The translations under genes and the position numbers were made by a program. A model generated the notes under the pieces. It did not search any database, was not told the DNA's origin, and worked only from the letters and a program-made list of their open reading frames with translations. Shown one piece after another: positions 4,257 through 8,326 of a stretch of DNA of 64,000 nucleotides (within the stretch, counting starts at the first letter, position 1; each line of letters starts with the position of its first letter). Source of the stretch: Gluconobacter wancherniae NBRC 103581. GTDB taxonomy: Bacteria > Pseudomonadota > Alphaproteobacteria > Acetobacterales > Acetobacteraceae. The stretch covers positions 558,001 to 622,000 of the forward strand of contig NZ_BJUZ01000002.1 of NCBI RefSeq assembly GCF_007988885.1, in the 5' to 3' direction.

Positions 4257-5549
4257 TTACCGTGGGCCGATTGTGGTAGTCGCAATCGTACTGCGCATCC
4301 CGATAATCGGGTCCAGCATCCATTGCCAAAGACGCCGCCGATCGGTTGCGATATCAGCAGACACCGTCATGCCGGCTTCAAGTCGATGTACGGCGCCATA
4401 TGCGGTGACATGGTCCTGATCGGGCTGGACGCGGATGCGATACAGGCTTTTGGTATCGGATTGCTGGCGTTCGCCGCGGGGACCAGAACCTTGCCCGCTC
4501 TGTGCTGGTTCAGATACGGGCGCGCGGGTGATCTCTGCGATATGCCCGTGATACAGGCCAAACTTCTGATAGGGATACGCGTCGTATCGCAGCAGAACTG
4601 GTTGGTTCTCGTGCAGGAAGCCTATGGATGTACTGTCCACATAAAGCTCTGCAAGAAGAGTTCCGTTCGTGGGGAGCAGGGTCAGCAGTGGTGTGCCAGA
4701 GGCCACCTGTTCGCCGAGATATCCGCGTACTCCGGTCAGGATGCCATCTTCGGGTGCAAGAATGACATTGCTTCTGCGCCCTTCATTCTCGGCAATCTGT
4801 TGATCAATGCCCGCAATCTGGCGATTCAGATCATTTAAATCATGGGTCAAATCAGTGTCGAAGCGCGCCAGTTTGGATGCCAGATCCGAGATTTTGCTTT
4901 CCGCATCGGTTCGCGACTGAAGCGCCTGTGCATGGGTGCTTAGCAGTTGGGCATATGTGTAGAGCTGACTCTGGAACTGTGTTTCCGTCACTAAATGAGT
5001 GGCTTCGGCGCCACGCATCTTGTCGAGCGCCTGCTGAACCAAGGGCAGAACCTTTTCGTCATTGGTAAGCTGAATACTGATTTGCTCGCGCTGTCTGGTC
5101 AGGAATTCGATTTGGTTCAGAGATGCCTGTCTTTCTATTGGCGCGGATTTCTCGCGCAGGGCCCGCTGCTGTTCCAGAAGGTTCTTCTGGCGCTCAAGAT
5201 CTGCAAGGACCTGATGCTGGGTTGGCCCGGACATCGACGTTGCTTCGAGGTCCTCGATGAAGAGAATATCCCCCCGATGTACGCGTTGCCCTTCTTCGGC
5301 ATGTCGAGTGGTGATGATGCCAGGCTGAATCGCGCCAACAGTCAGGAGGCCGCTTCGGGGCATCATCTGGCCGGTAGCATGAACGCGCCGCGTATAGGTG
5401 CCAAACCCTGCCAAGCCTGCTGCAAGCACTACCAGCCCCGCACAACTCCACGCCACAATCTTCACGGAGAGCGGCTGGCTCAACTGTACGCGCCCCAGCC
5501 AGGAATCCCGGCGGGCATCTAAAGCCTCCGGACGGAACAGTGAAGTCAT
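4257..5549 (-). CDS. HlyD/CvaA-type membrane fusion protein
   Basis: 430-residue periplasmic adaptor that links the ABC exporter to an outer-membrane channel. One N-terminal transmembrane helix (about residues 30-50) is followed by a short lipoyl half-motif, a long coiled-coil region (about 120-255, rich in Gln, Leu and Glu) and the second lipoyl/beta-barrel half (GILTGVRGYLGEQVASGTPL). The order and length fit the RaxA/CvaA group that partners C39 ABC exporters. No TolC-like gene lies next to it, so the channel must come from elsewhere, possibly one of the NodT-type proteins in this window. Confidence 0.9.
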   Translation of the reverse strand: MTSLFRPEALDARRDSWLGRVQLSQPLSVKIVAWSCAGLVVLAAGLAGFGTYTRRVHATGQMMPRSGLLTVGAIQPGIITTRHAEEGQRVHRGDILFIEDLEATSMSGPTQHQVLADLERQKNLLEQQRALREKSAPIERQASLNQIEFLTRQREQISIQLTNDEKVLPLVQQALDKMRGAEATHLVTETQFQSQLYTYAQLLSTHAQALQSRTDAESKISDLASKLARFDTDLTHDLNDLNRQIAGIDQQIAENEGRRSNVILAPEDGILTGVRGYLGEQVASGTPLLTLLPTNGTLLAELYVDSTSIGFLHENQPVLLRYDAYPYQKFGLYHGHIAEITRAPVSEPAQSGQGSGPRGERQQSDTKSLYRIRVQPDQDHVTAYGAVHRLEAGMTVSADIATDRRRLWQWMLDPIIGMRSTIATTTIGPR

Positions 5550-5604
5550 AAGGCTGCTATATCACTCCGCATATTACGAAATAGTAAAAGTGTAATAAAA
5601 TAAA

Positions 5605-5633
5605 AAAGCTCCCCGATGAAAACGGAGAGCTTT
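5605..5633 (-). terminator. Intrinsic terminator downstream of the microcin-like gene
   Basis: On the minus strand an 11-bp stem (5623-5633 with 5605-5615, one G-U wobble) encloses a 7-nt loop and is followed by a T-rich run. It lies between the peptide gene and the adaptor gene, so the peptide can be transcribed at a higher level than its exporter, with either readthrough or a second promoter in the roughly 55 bp before 5549. Confidence 0.8.
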
Positions 5634-5686
5634 CTGTGTTCGGTTATTTCAAAGTTTTTATTACTCAAATTTTTAAATTTGAGAAT

Positions 5687-6082
5687 TCAGGACTGGGAAG
5701 CGCTTGGAGGTGGGAAAGTAATTCCAAGTACTGTGGGAGACTGAAGAGAGGTATTGATCGCGCTCAAAACGTTTTGATAAAGAGACAAAGCGCCGTTGAT
5801 GCCATTCTGGGCACCGTATTGTGCGCCGATCTTTATAAAATTACCGATATCTTTGAGGTCGGACGTCAGAATGCCGTTGGATGCGCCTGAAAGTGCGTCG
5901 ACTGCAAAGTTGAAGACGCCTGCAACGTATCCCGCAGTTGCGCCGATCTGAGCTCCAATACGTGTGTTATTAATAGAGAAACAGCCGCCCCAGCTTGGCT
6001 GTCTGTAGCTATTGCCCCATCCGCAGTAACCGCCTGAGACGTAAGTAAGCTCTTCGGTGCGCAGGTCGCGTAAAGTAGACAT
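5687..6082 (-). CDS. Microcin/bacteriocin-like peptide with double-glycine leader
   Basis: 131-residue protein starting at the ATG at 6082, which has a GGA-type ribosome site about 8 nt upstream; a TTG four codons earlier is less likely. The first 18 residues, MSTLRDLRTEELTYVSGG, are a textbook double-glycine leader (Leu, Glu-Leu and Val at the expected spacings before Gly-Gly), the substrate type of C39 exporters. The predicted mature product is 113 residues, starts YCGWGN, has only two Cys close to its N terminus, and is rich in Gly, Ala, Asn and Ser with GxxxG-like repeats, resembling membrane-active microcins such as colicin V in size and composition. No homolog was recognised by eye in the core. 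Activity as an antibacterial is an inference from leader, core composition and neighbouring exporter. Confidence 0.8.
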   Translation of the reverse strand: MSTLRDLRTEELTYVSGGYCGWGNSYRQPSWGGCFSINNTRIGAQIGATAGYVAGVFNFAVDALSGASNGILTSDLKDIGNFIKIGAQYGAQNGINGALSLYQNVLSAINTSLQSPTVLGITFPPPSASQS

Positions 6083-6556: not shown

Positions 6557-8326
6557 ATGAAGACCATGACACAGACCGCCACCCCCGCTCTGCAGGGTGC
6601 CCAGACCGCTGTGGCTCTTCCTGCCAATGTAAGTGGAGGGGCTGGTACGGCAGATAATCCGTATGTCCTGAAAAGTAACTCTGGAACGGTTACTCTGATT
6701 TCAGGAAAGTACTACACTGTACCCGACAATATAACGATTGGAACTGCGCCAACATCCGTTGACTCGACGCACGCCCGTACTTCAAATGATGCTACGGGTG
6801 GGTTGGTTGTTAATGGAGCTTATGTCGAAATTTCCAGTGGTGCTTCCGTAAATGGTACGATTGATATGTCGGCTTCGGGGTCATCGTTAAAGCTGGATGC
6901 AACCTCTTCTTGGTCTTACACCGCATACAATCCAAATAAAGCAAGCCTCGGCGGTACTACCGTAACCTGGAATTCGATTAAGGGCGCTGTGGTCAGTGGT
7001 CTCGTGAATTCCGACGGTTCTGCGAACACGAATGTCAGTGTTGTGGTGGAAGGAGTGGATACTTCAAATGCCGTGAGTAAGATTTATGAGCCTTTTTATA
7101 TTGCCGGGACGACCAGTACGGGCTCAACCAATGGATCAGAATTTATTTTGGGCAAAGCTCAAGCGTCTAACGGAAATACAGCCAATCTGGGCTTCGAAAT
7201 AGTTTATCCGAATGGTGCACAAATATCTAACAATAAAAATCTTCCATTCAATACTACGAAGAACAGCAAGACCGGCGAATACACGGTCAACAATTCAGTT
7301 TACACCTGCTTTCTTGCTGGCACGATGATCCTCATGGCTGATGGAAGTCAGAGGGCAGTCGAGGAAATCGGTGTGGGCGATGCTGTTGCAGTTCTTGTTG
7401 ATGGTGAGCGCGCTGCGCGTGATGTGATCTGGGTCGGACGTCATTTTGCCCATGTTCGGAACGGGCTTGCCGATGATGAGGCTGGCTATCCTGTTCGTAT
7501 TCGTGCGGGCGCAATGGCCGAGAACACGCCTGAGCGCGATCTGCTTGTCACTGCAGAGCATTGTCTGTTTGTGAATAACCGCTTTGTTCCGGTGCGGATG
7601 CTCGTGAATGGTGGTTCAATCGCCTATGACCACAGCCACAGCTCATATTTCTATTATCATGTCGAAACTGCTGATCATTCCGTGATTTTTGCGGAAGGCT
7701 GTGCCACGGAATCTTTCCTAGATACTGGGCATCGTCGTCATTTTGACGGTAGCGACAACATCCTTTCATTTCTGCCAAAAACCTGGGCGCAGGCAGCGGT
7801 TCCCCTTGCTGTTGATCGTGCTTTTGTCGAACCTGTTCATTCAGCACTGAGTGATCGTTCTGCTTCCCTGGGGTATGAAGTCACTGCTCCAGCTCAGACG
7901 ACGACAGACTCTGACCTGCACCTGCTGACAGATACAGGTATGAAAATTCGCCCCGTACGGTTTGCCGGAGGAAATGCTCTGTTCATGCTCCCGGAAGGTA
8001 TCGAGAGCGTACATCTGGTTTCTCGTTCAGCACGGCCATCAGACGTTGAGGGAGTGTTCGTTGACGATCGCCGTGAGCTGGGTGTTCTGGTGGGGAAAGT
8101 GTCTCTCTGGCAGGCTGCATCCACGCACGTCATTACATCTCACCTGAGCGGTAATGCTGCGGGATGGTATGCGCCTGAAGGTCAGCGAAGCTGGAGCGCA
8201 GGTTATGCGCAGCTTCCGTTGGAGCGGCATATTGCCGAGCAGGGTGCTATGCTTTCCGTAGAAATTCTGGCTGGAGGGCCATATCTGCTTTCGACTGAGA
8301 AGACGTCAGCAGCTCTTTACGGCTGA
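6557..8326 (+). CDS. Hint-domain (Hedgehog/intein-type) surface or secreted protein
   Basis: 589-residue protein. Residues 1-250 are a Ser/Thr/Asn/Gly-rich, beta-strand-like region reminiscent of adhesin passengers. A Hint domain starts at Cys251 (codon 7307-7309) in VYTCFLAGTMI, followed by the typical ADGSQRAVEEIGVGDAV block and a TAEH motif (block B, TxxH) about 100 residues on. Such domains can cleave the peptide bond before the Cys. The last ~190 residues follow the Hint fold and are of unknown role. No Sec signal is apparent; VSGG occurs at residues 25-28. The start ATG has an AGGA site 9-10 nt upstream. It is divergent from the microcin-like gene and ends at a strong terminator. Type I export is an inference from context. 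Confidence 0.8.
   Translation: MKTMTQTATPALQGAQTAVALPANVSGGAGTADNPYVLKSNSGTVTLISGKYYTVPDNITIGTAPTSVDSTHARTSNDATGGLVVNGAYVEISSGASVNGTIDMSASGSSLKLDATSSWSYTAYNPNKASLGGTTVTWNSIKGAVVSGLVNSDGSANTNVSVVVEGVDTSNAVSKIYEPFYIAGTTSTGSTNGSEFILGKAQASNGNTANLGFEIVYPNGAQISNNKNLPFNTTKNSKTGEYTVNNSVYTCFLAGTMILMADGSQRAVEEIGVGDAVAVLVDGERAARDVIWVGRHFAHVRNGLADDEAGYPVRIRAGAMAENTPERDLLVTAEHCLFVNNRFVPVRMLVNGGSIAYDHSHSSYFYYHVETADHSVIFAEGCATESFLDTGHRRHFDGSDNILSFLPKTWAQAAVPLAVDRAFVEPVHSALSDRSASLGYEVTAPAQTTTDSDLHLLTDTGMKIRPVRFAGGNALFMLPEGIESVHLVSRSARPSDVEGVFVDDRRELGVLVGKVSLWQAASTHVITSHLSGNAAGWYAPEGQRSWSAGYAQLPLERHIAEQGAMLSVEILAGGPYLLSTEKTSAALYG

What the first reader, a model, noticed from the sequence alone, without database searches (positions are those of the whole stretch)
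5687..6082. Uncharacterised microcin-like peptide with a perfect double-glycine leader next to its own C39 exporter
Seen in the sequence: an 18-residue leader ending VSGG and a 113-residue Gly/Ala-rich core, with a C39 ABC exporter that has all three catalytic residues and an HlyD adaptor downstream. Known: C39 exporters cut after double glycine. Inferred: this is a secreted large-core microcin of the colicin V size class from an acetic acid bacterium, with a core I could not assign to a known family. Its two N-terminal cysteines could form a small loop.
Basis: partly seen in the sequence, partly recalled or inferred. Interest (0 to 1): 0.75.

Follow-up and report, generated by a model that had tools for sequence, protein, structure and literature searches.

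The report
Acetic-acid-bacteria glycine-zipper export protein family
A vinegar-type bacterium carries a gene for a small helix-forming protein with its own export pump, one of a family found here only in Gluconobacter and Acetobacter, which probably acts on neighbouring cells or builds part of the cell surface.

Summary
On the minus strand (6082→5687) lies a 131-aa protein with an 18-aa double-glycine leader and a 113-aa core (11.6 kDa), followed by HlyD (5549→4257) and the only C39 exporter found in this genome (4244→2043).

It is a real family: 28 members collected with this one, all in Gluconobacter or Acetobacter, under purifying selection. In 75 genomes of these genera the peptide occurs in 17, each time with this exporter. 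Nine other genomes keep the exporter; in seven of them a different double-glycine ORF lies nearby, and one such cargo family shares only the leader. Cargo is therefore swappable.

"Microcin" is only partly supported: the core exceeds the 60–90 aa of known class II microcins, no conserved immunity gene was found beside it, and MccV and Bacteriocin_IIc profiles do not reach cut-off. The core has two glycine zippers and a predicted helical hairpin, nearer to the Caulobacter Cdz proteins, although the exporter-linked Acetobacter copies lack the strict zipper. I favour a Cdz-like exported antibacterial protein (about 0.45); a non-toxic surface role is the main rival. New variant of a known kind.

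The parts
5687..6082 (-). double-glycine cargo protein, 131 aa plus stop
   Evidence: translation; family; alignment A3
6029..6082 (-). 18-aa double-glycine leader, MSTLRDLRTEELTYVSGG
   Evidence: R5 L7 E11 V15 G17 G18 invariant in 20 sequences; the only part aligned with an unrelated cargo family of the same exporter clade
5690..6028 (-). 113-aa core; predicted helices at residues 34-64 and 69-114
5918..5956 (-). glycine zipper 1, GAQIGATAGYVAG (residues 43-55)
5801..5827 (-). glycine zipper 2, GAQYGAQNG (residues 86-94)
5603..5635 (-). terminator-like hairpin with T-run between cargo gene and hlyD
   Evidence: consensus scan (9 such sites found in the region, 6.0 expected by shuffling, so weak on its own); by eye a hairpin of other sequence in the same gap of 12 relatives, sequences
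4257..5549 (-). HlyD-family membrane fusion protein, 430 aa
2043..4244 (-). C39 peptidase-containing ABC exporter, 733 aa
3822..4208 (-). C39 peptidase domain (residues 13-141)
   Evidence: PF03412 127.8 bits
6083..6556 (.). intergenic region between the divergent cargo and Hint genes
6557..8326 (+). divergent Hint-domain protein, 589 aa; N-terminal part predicted beta-rich
   Evidence: PF13403 106.9 bits; recurrent at this place; low-confidence model
7304..7726 (+). Hint_2 domain (residues 250-390) with C251, T332 and H335 invariant in 11 sequences

Best explanation
The gene encodes a precursor whose leader is recognised and cut after Gly-Gly by the C39 domain of the adjacent exporter, and the 113-aa core is passed with HlyD and an outer-membrane channel encoded elsewhere to the outside. 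The mature protein is mostly two alpha helices carrying glycine zippers, and I think it associates with membranes and with itself. It most likely works like CdzC/CdzD of Caulobacter: an exported, largely cell-associated glycine-zipper protein that harms neighbouring cells on contact, with the Hint protein as a surface partner. Shown here: the gene, leader, exporter, family, purifying selection, co-occurrence and cargo swapping. Inferred from known C39 biochemistry: cleavage and export. Inferred by analogy only: surface retention, oligomerisation, antibacterial action and the Hint protein's role.
For: The only C39 domain found in the genome is next door. Peptide in 17 of 75 Gluconobacter/Acetobacter genomes, all 17 with an exporter orthologue of at least 955 bits. 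The leader is the only region aligned with an unrelated 86-aa cargo family (hhalign columns 4-19, probability 14%, E 0.002) that lies beside the same exporter clade in other Acetobacter. GxxxGxxxG at two places in the window core, and at least once in 16 of 28 members. Predicted helical hairpin, block-mean pLDDT above 80 for residues 41-120. The window protein meets the Cdz length, leader and zipper criteria (PMC5380434 section 13). Weak sub-threshold matches of relatives to MccV (4 of 20) and Bacteriocin_IIc (6 of 20). Cargo diverges faster than exporter: 44% against 78% identity, window against L047, as is common in bacteriocin loci (general knowledge).
Against: No conserved immunity gene beside the cargo. 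Twelve of 28 members lack the strict GxxxGxxxG, and these are exporter-linked Acetobacter copies, mostly with Ala for the first Gly. The core is conserved between species and a second Acetobacter copy sits in a shared, apparently housekeeping neighbourhood, which also suits a structural role. The Hint neighbour is not part of any Cdz or microcin system I know of. No PDB fold match (best E 2.2). Surface location and toxicity are untested.
Confidence: 0.45

Rival explanations
1. A secreted structural or surface protein without toxicity: the helical cargo and the Hint beta-rich protein build a surface layer, adhesin or matrix; the exporter is dedicated to surface components that lineages swap.
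For: No conserved immunity gene; purifying selection; 11 of 13 peptide-bearing Acetobacter genomes have two or three copies; divergent Hint neighbour in place in 14 of 14 family loci where it could be judged, while no double-glycine ORF was found around the five other Hint genes of this genome.
Against: Replacement of the cargo by other short double-glycine ORFs, including 61- and 56-aa ones of bacteriocin size, is more typical of bacteriocin loci; glycine zippers and sub-threshold bacteriocin profile matches.
Confidence: 0.32
2. A freely diffusible class II microcin with an unlinked or unrecognised immunity gene.
For: Leader, C39 exporter and HlyD architecture; the MccV profile covers leader and part of the core in L033 (E 0.0017, 19.3 bits against cut-off 27).
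Against: Core 113 aa against 60-90 aa for known ones; immunity gene normally immediately adjacent (PMC10233263) and no conserved one found; no match in the plasmid collection.
Confidence: 0.15
3. A signalling peptide or pheromone exported by a C39 transporter.
For: C39 exporters also carry pheromones (general knowledge); a weak BlpC pheromone model match in 2 of 20 members, best E 0.011.
Against: The core is over 110 aa, helical and glycine-rich. None of the neighbour genes that I ran through Pfam is a sensor kinase, but not all neighbours were run. A BTAD-type regulator lies beyond Hint in seven Acetobacter loci.
Confidence: 0.04
4. The mature N-terminal cysteine of most relatives attacks the thioester made by the Hint domain, joining the cargo covalently to the Hint protein's N-terminal domain.
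For: Residue after GG is Cys in 24 of 28 members; Hint C251, T332 and H335 invariant in 11 of 11 adjacent Hint proteins; the two genes are neighbours.
Against: The window member has Tyr-Cys after GG and three others start with Phe; other cargo beside Hint genes starts with Thr (six loci L073-L078) or Ala (L069).
Confidence: 0.04

Closest known systems
Cdz system of Caulobacter crescentus (CdzC/CdzD with type I secretion CdzAB, immunity CdzI)
   Same: Small protein (131 aa) with GG leader and glycine zippers beside C39 ABC and HlyD genes; an alphaproteobacterium; more than one cargo gene in 11 of 13 peptide-bearing Acetobacter.
   Different: No conserved immunity gene found; recurrent Hint-domain neighbour; conserved cysteines; strict zipper in 16 of 28 members only; no experimental surface or killing data. 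CdzAB and CdzC/D were not aligned with it here.
Class IIa microcins (MccV/colicin V)
   Same: Leader type, C39 exporter, HlyD adaptor, cysteines in the core; sub-threshold PF17508 match in 4 of 20 relatives.
   Different: Core 113 instead of 60-90 aa; no conserved adjacent immunity gene; no match of the window protein to PF17508 at E 1.
Pfam Bacteriocin_IIc (PF10439) / TIGR03949 lactobin A/cerein 7B family
   Same: Double-glycine leader followed by a glycine-rich core.
   Different: Window protein 11.8 bits against cut-off 27.1; best relative E 0.0037; TIGR03949 best E 0.024 in 4 of 20.
Hint_2 (PF13403) proteins of acetic acid bacteria
   Same: The divergent neighbour is a clear member, and the genome has five further relatives.
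   Different: In this genome only this one has double-glycine cargo and exporter beside it; its N-terminal part is shared by the neighbours in this family's loci.

Membership tests
Class II microcin | N-terminal leader with double-glycine cleavage site | tested here: met
   G17 G18 invariant in 20 sequences
Class II microcin | C39 peptidase ABC exporter and membrane fusion protein encoded close by | tested here: met
Class II microcin | Core of 60-90 aa, about 5-10 kDa | tested here: not met
   113 aa, 11,623 Da against review values
Class II microcin | Adjacent small membrane immunity gene | tested here: not met
   ORFs of 25 aa or more within 700 bases of the cargo in 20 loci (13 exporter-linked with the window, 7 unlinked): I found no shared ORF that looks like a gene of its own; the widely shared ones are the cargo or, as far as checked, alternative frames and opposite strands of cargo, hlyD or Hint (six clusters printed). 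A 40-aa TTG ORF (5546-5668 minus) across the terminator has a hydrophobic stretch but no relative among them. A fast-diverging or unlinked immunity gene is not excluded.
Class II microcin | Antibacterial activity | not testable with these tools
   needs culture
Cdz-like glycine-zipper system | 60-151 residues | tested here: met
   131 aa; criterion read in PMC5380434 section 13
Cdz-like glycine-zipper system | Leader ending in G[G/A/S] | tested here: met
[quoted passage not shown]
   GAQIGATAGYVAG and GAQYGAQNG in the window protein; strict motif in 16 of 28 members only
[quoted passage not shown]
   ends FPPPSASQS, polar but not charged; no scored test
Cdz-like glycine-zipper system | Type I secretion genes homologous to CdzAB within about 10 kb | tested here: inconclusive
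   C39 ABC and HlyD are adjacent; not compared with CdzAB themselves
Cdz-like glycine-zipper system | Surface aggregates, contact-dependent killing, immunity protein | not testable with these tools
   needs experiments; no conserved immunity candidate
Bacteriocin_IIc (PF10439) | Score above gathering cut-off 27.1 | tested here: not met
   11.8 bits for the window protein; among the 10 relatives run with scores shown the best is 17.5 bits
MccV (PF17508) | Score above gathering cut-off 27 | tested here: not met
   window protein: no match at E 1. Relatives: 4 of 20 match at E up to 0.1, best 0.00089; the two with printed scores have 19.3 and 14.8 bits

The most novel reading that the evidence does not exclude
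Cargo and Hint protein form one exported machine: C39 processing exposes an N-terminal cysteine on the cargo (24 of 28 members), and the Hint domain of its divergent neighbour makes a thioester that this cysteine attacks, a natural native chemical ligation that fixes swappable double-glycine cargo onto a beta-rich surface protein. The window's own member, with Tyr before Cys, would need trimming or a non-covalent variant.
Probability: 0.04. Interest if true: 0.9.

Novelty: new variant of a known kind. Interest (0 to 1): 0.45.

Why it matters
It defines an unassigned double-glycine family with its own exporter in acetic acid bacteria; four term searches of the held open-access library turned up no description of one. 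The same exporter clade sits beside unrelated cargo in other species, so the locus is a natural test bed for how C39 exporters recognise leaders alone. The recurrent Hint gene beside a double-glycine cargo is a pairing I do not know from the literature (one narrow search found nothing on it) and makes a concrete experiment possible.

Tried and rejected
Spurious ORF: rejected by family conservation and dN/dS. Known family above cut-off: none in Pfam or NCBIfam, and no match at E 0.01 in PADLOC or PHROGs, for the window protein; Barwin (14.8 bits, cut-off 21) and PRK10510 (10.3 bits, cut-off 307) are taken as chance. PDB sequences: best E 0.15, carnobacteriocin B2, profile positions 1-45, not significant. 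Plasmid-borne: no plasmid match. Wider spread: of 385 genomes drawn from the class only the window's own matched at E 1e-5; of 397 genomes of the family 13 matched at E 0.001, and the seven outside Gluconobacter and Acetobacter are weak (best 6.2e-5), reach at most profile position 70 of 138 and were not counted. Fold search: best PDB match E 2.2. The Hint model is poor (pLDDT 47.9; only short stretches reach 70), so I ran no fold search on it. No double-glycine ORF by my pattern in the 12 kb fetched around each of the five other Hint genes of this genome. Immunity: one group of small ORFs in eight Acetobacter loci touches the gap before hlyD, with a hydrophobic stretch in two of them; the part shared by the group lies in another frame of hlyD, and four of the eight begin inside hlyD, so rejected. 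A suspected sensor kinase beside the Acetobacter loci is leucyl-tRNA synthetase. Gluconacin: the paper I looked into gave none of the terms I asked for, so no comparison. Paper searches 43, 50 and 75 served background or were uninformative (no 'Hint domain' in the 12 listed).

Rows dropped before counts: the 28 members are the protein-search hits including the window, without L006 (stops inside, E 0.0024) and L021 (stops inside, E 0.003); L002 and L003 (own genome, E 0.03 and 0.48) were not counted either. The leader-level third row of G323 and second row of G346 were not counted as copies; a contig-edge fragment in G322 was counted for presence and copies but is not in the 28. In one search four weaker rows were not counted as orthologues (G353 second partial 722.7 bits, G054 38% identity, G180 fragment, G169 second fragment) and were not fetched.

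Full report
What is there. The ORF lies on the minus strand from 6082 to 5687. It has an 18-residue leader ending VSGG and a 113-residue core of 11,623 Da, pI 8.0, with 16 Gly, 12 Ala and 2 Cys. A TTG start four codons upstream is possible; I used the ATG, where the aligned relatives also start or nearly so. On the same strand follow HlyD (430 aa) and a C39 ABC exporter (733 aa) whose C39 domain (127.8 bits) has Q18, C24, H97 and D113. Between cargo and hlyD a terminator-like hairpin stands at 5635-5603 (13 pairs; that scan found 9 terminator-like sites where 6.0 were expected, so it is weak on its own). The 122-190-base gaps of 12 relatives also hold hairpins of different sequence by eye (sequences; not scored). 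It suggests that the cargo is transcribed more than the exporter.

Chance. One of 435 ORFs of 40-200 aa in the window fits the leader pattern, and 20 triplet-shuffled windows gave none. The pattern was written after seeing the protein, so this is a rough control. The family evidence is stronger.

The family. A protein search found homologues at E 0.01 in 4 of 26 Gluconobacter genomes and 14 of 49 Acetobacter genomes, one of which (G351) has stops inside and was dropped. A profile search of the same 75 genomes gives 17 (4 and 13). Genus names come from the named loci (19 loci: 16 Acetobacter, 3 Gluconobacter) and matching contig lengths. Outside these genera I found only weak, mostly leader-level matches (seven genomes) and nothing but the window's own genome among 385 drawn from the class. 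The 20 aligned members all keep R5, L7, E11, V15, G17, G18, C20 and in the core G51, A54, G55, N58, D62, A67, G86, I109, F123, P124. dN/dS is about 0.06-0.27 in the seven of 11 pairs where dS was not saturated.

Exporter and cargo. One C39 domain was found in the genome (genome 99.88% complete). All 17 peptide-bearing genomes have an exporter orthologue of at least 955 bits; nine more genomes have such an exporter without this peptide. I fetched their ten loci. In seven genomes another double-glycine ORF lies near the exporter: an 86-aa family in G169, G340, G341, G242 and G353, a 124-aa Gly-rich protein in G250 (downstream of the exporter), and 61- and 56-aa ORFs in G030. In G299 and G339 my pattern found none. 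Profile comparison of the family with the 86-aa cargo aligns columns 4-19 only, exactly the leader (probability 14%, E 0.002). So unrelated cores stand behind one kind of leader beside one exporter clade. Cleavage and export are inferred from known C39 biochemistry.

Copies. Eleven of 13 peptide-bearing Acetobacter genomes have two or three copies (G322 counted with its contig-edge fragment). In the seven genomes examined (L033-L039) the second copy lies away from the exporter, beside a gene cluster shared by all seven (c5; QueC by Pfam in L035), with a radical SAM protein just below Pfam cut-off in the three tested and, in five, a 2-oxoglutarate dehydrogenase E1-type cluster (c17; Pfam in L035). 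It may be exported in trans, which is an inference.

The Hint gene. A Hint_2 protein is encoded divergently next to the cargo. Of 17 exporter-linked family loci, 14 hold enough flank to judge and all 14 have it: the window, L040-L047, L049 and L050, L080, and G295 and G318 by coordinates. In G218 (L048), G305 (L051/L079) and G322 the contig ends first. In the ten loci with other or no cargo, Hint lies within about 350 bases of the cargo in six (L073, L075-L078, and L069 where it is downstream), about 3.6 kb away in L074, and was not found in the fetched stretch of L070, L071 and L072. Hint genes are common (70 of 75 genomes at E 1e-20), but the five others of this genome have no double-glycine ORF, by my pattern, in the 12 kb around each. 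Vertical descent explains part of the conserved order; the repeat with unrelated cargo argues for a functional link. Cargo and Hint both diverge faster than the exporter (window against L047: 44% and 53%, against 75% for HlyD and 78% for C39). C251, T332 and H335 are invariant in 11 adjacent Hint proteins; autoprocessing is family knowledge (review passages, PMC7765530), not tested here.

Structure. AlphaFold2 with the family alignment gives two helices, 34-64 and 69-114 (pLDDT 70.9, block means above 80 for residues 41-120, pTM 0.62), with no PDB fold match. GxxxGxxxG occurs within 43-55 and at 86-94. The strict motif occurs in 16 of 28 members; the 12 without it are all Acetobacter copies of the exporter-linked type, ten of them with Ala for the first Gly. 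Each of the 28 has at least two Cys in the first 20 core residues. A second pair (HASC and a late Cys) is present together in 21, absent together in 6 and split in 1 of 28, as expected for a disulfide.

What it is. The Cdz paper (PMC5380434; found passages and section 13 read) defines Cdz-like proteins by length, leader, glycine zippers and a polar tail. The window protein meets the first three. The class II microcin review (PMC10233263, passages read) gives a 60-90 aa core and an adjacent immunity gene; neither is met, although a fast-diverging or unlinked immunity gene cannot be excluded. I therefore call it Cdz-like in mode of work, do not file it among the microcins, and leave Cdz membership open because killing, surface retention and immunity are untested and CdzAB were not compared. 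The main rival is a non-toxic surface role with the Hint protein.

Novelty. In the held library one paper joined microcin, Gluconobacter and double-glycine, a review of leader-removing proteases seen in the listing only; none joined acetic acid bacteria, bacteriocin, Acetobacter and C39, none joined Acetobacter, contact-dependent and glycine zipper, and none held four of the five terms. A survey of Acetobacteraceae gene clusters (PMC8776678, passages read) has no occurrence of 'bacteriocin' or 'microcin' in its main text and mentions Hint-domain proteins only beside a polyketide cluster of Asaia. The Cdz paper's main text does not mention Gluconobacter or Acetobacter. Most subscription papers are not covered.

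Noticed in passing
window 6557-8326: Hint_2 protein divergently beside the cargo gene, without an evident signal peptide by eye; recurrent partner of the locus in Gluconobacter and Acetobacter.
   Followed up: yes
window 5603-5635: Terminator-like hairpin between cargo gene and hlyD, with hairpins of different sequence in the same gap of relatives by eye.
   Followed up: partly
L073 7948-8208, L074 8001-8261, L075 5774-6034, L076 5625-5885, L077 8136-8396, L078 10664-10924: A different 86-aa double-glycine family (TLGDALGTTLTDTLAG...) beside the same exporter clade in other Acetobacter, itself unassigned.
   Followed up: partly
L071 8043-8228 and 9708-9962: Two short bacteriocin-sized double-glycine ORFs (61 aa, and 56 aa from the likely start) near the exporter of another Acetobacter, with transposase-like ORFs between them by eye.
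   Followed up: no
L040-L046, e.g. L044 5220-7433: A large protein with a BTAD domain (27.3 bits in L044, cut-off 22.1) lies beyond the Hint gene; its cluster is shared by seven Acetobacter loci.
   Followed up: partly
L041 11900-14085: Exporter ORF of Acetobacter fallax is split near its end into two overlapping frames.
   Followed up: no
L033 9435-9785: A YnfA/UPF0060 small membrane protein lies divergently beside the unlinked cargo copy; a similar ORF is in L034 and L038.
   Followed up: partly
L069 10072-10464: Gly-rich 124-aa double-glycine ORF in a Gluconobacter with a sub-threshold DUF5862 match (24.6 bits, cut-off 33.3), followed by its own Hint gene.
   Followed up: no
28 family members, e.g. 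window residues 20 and 34: Cysteines come in coupled sets: two or more near the mature N-terminus in each member, and a second pair present or absent together in 27 of 28.
   Followed up: partly
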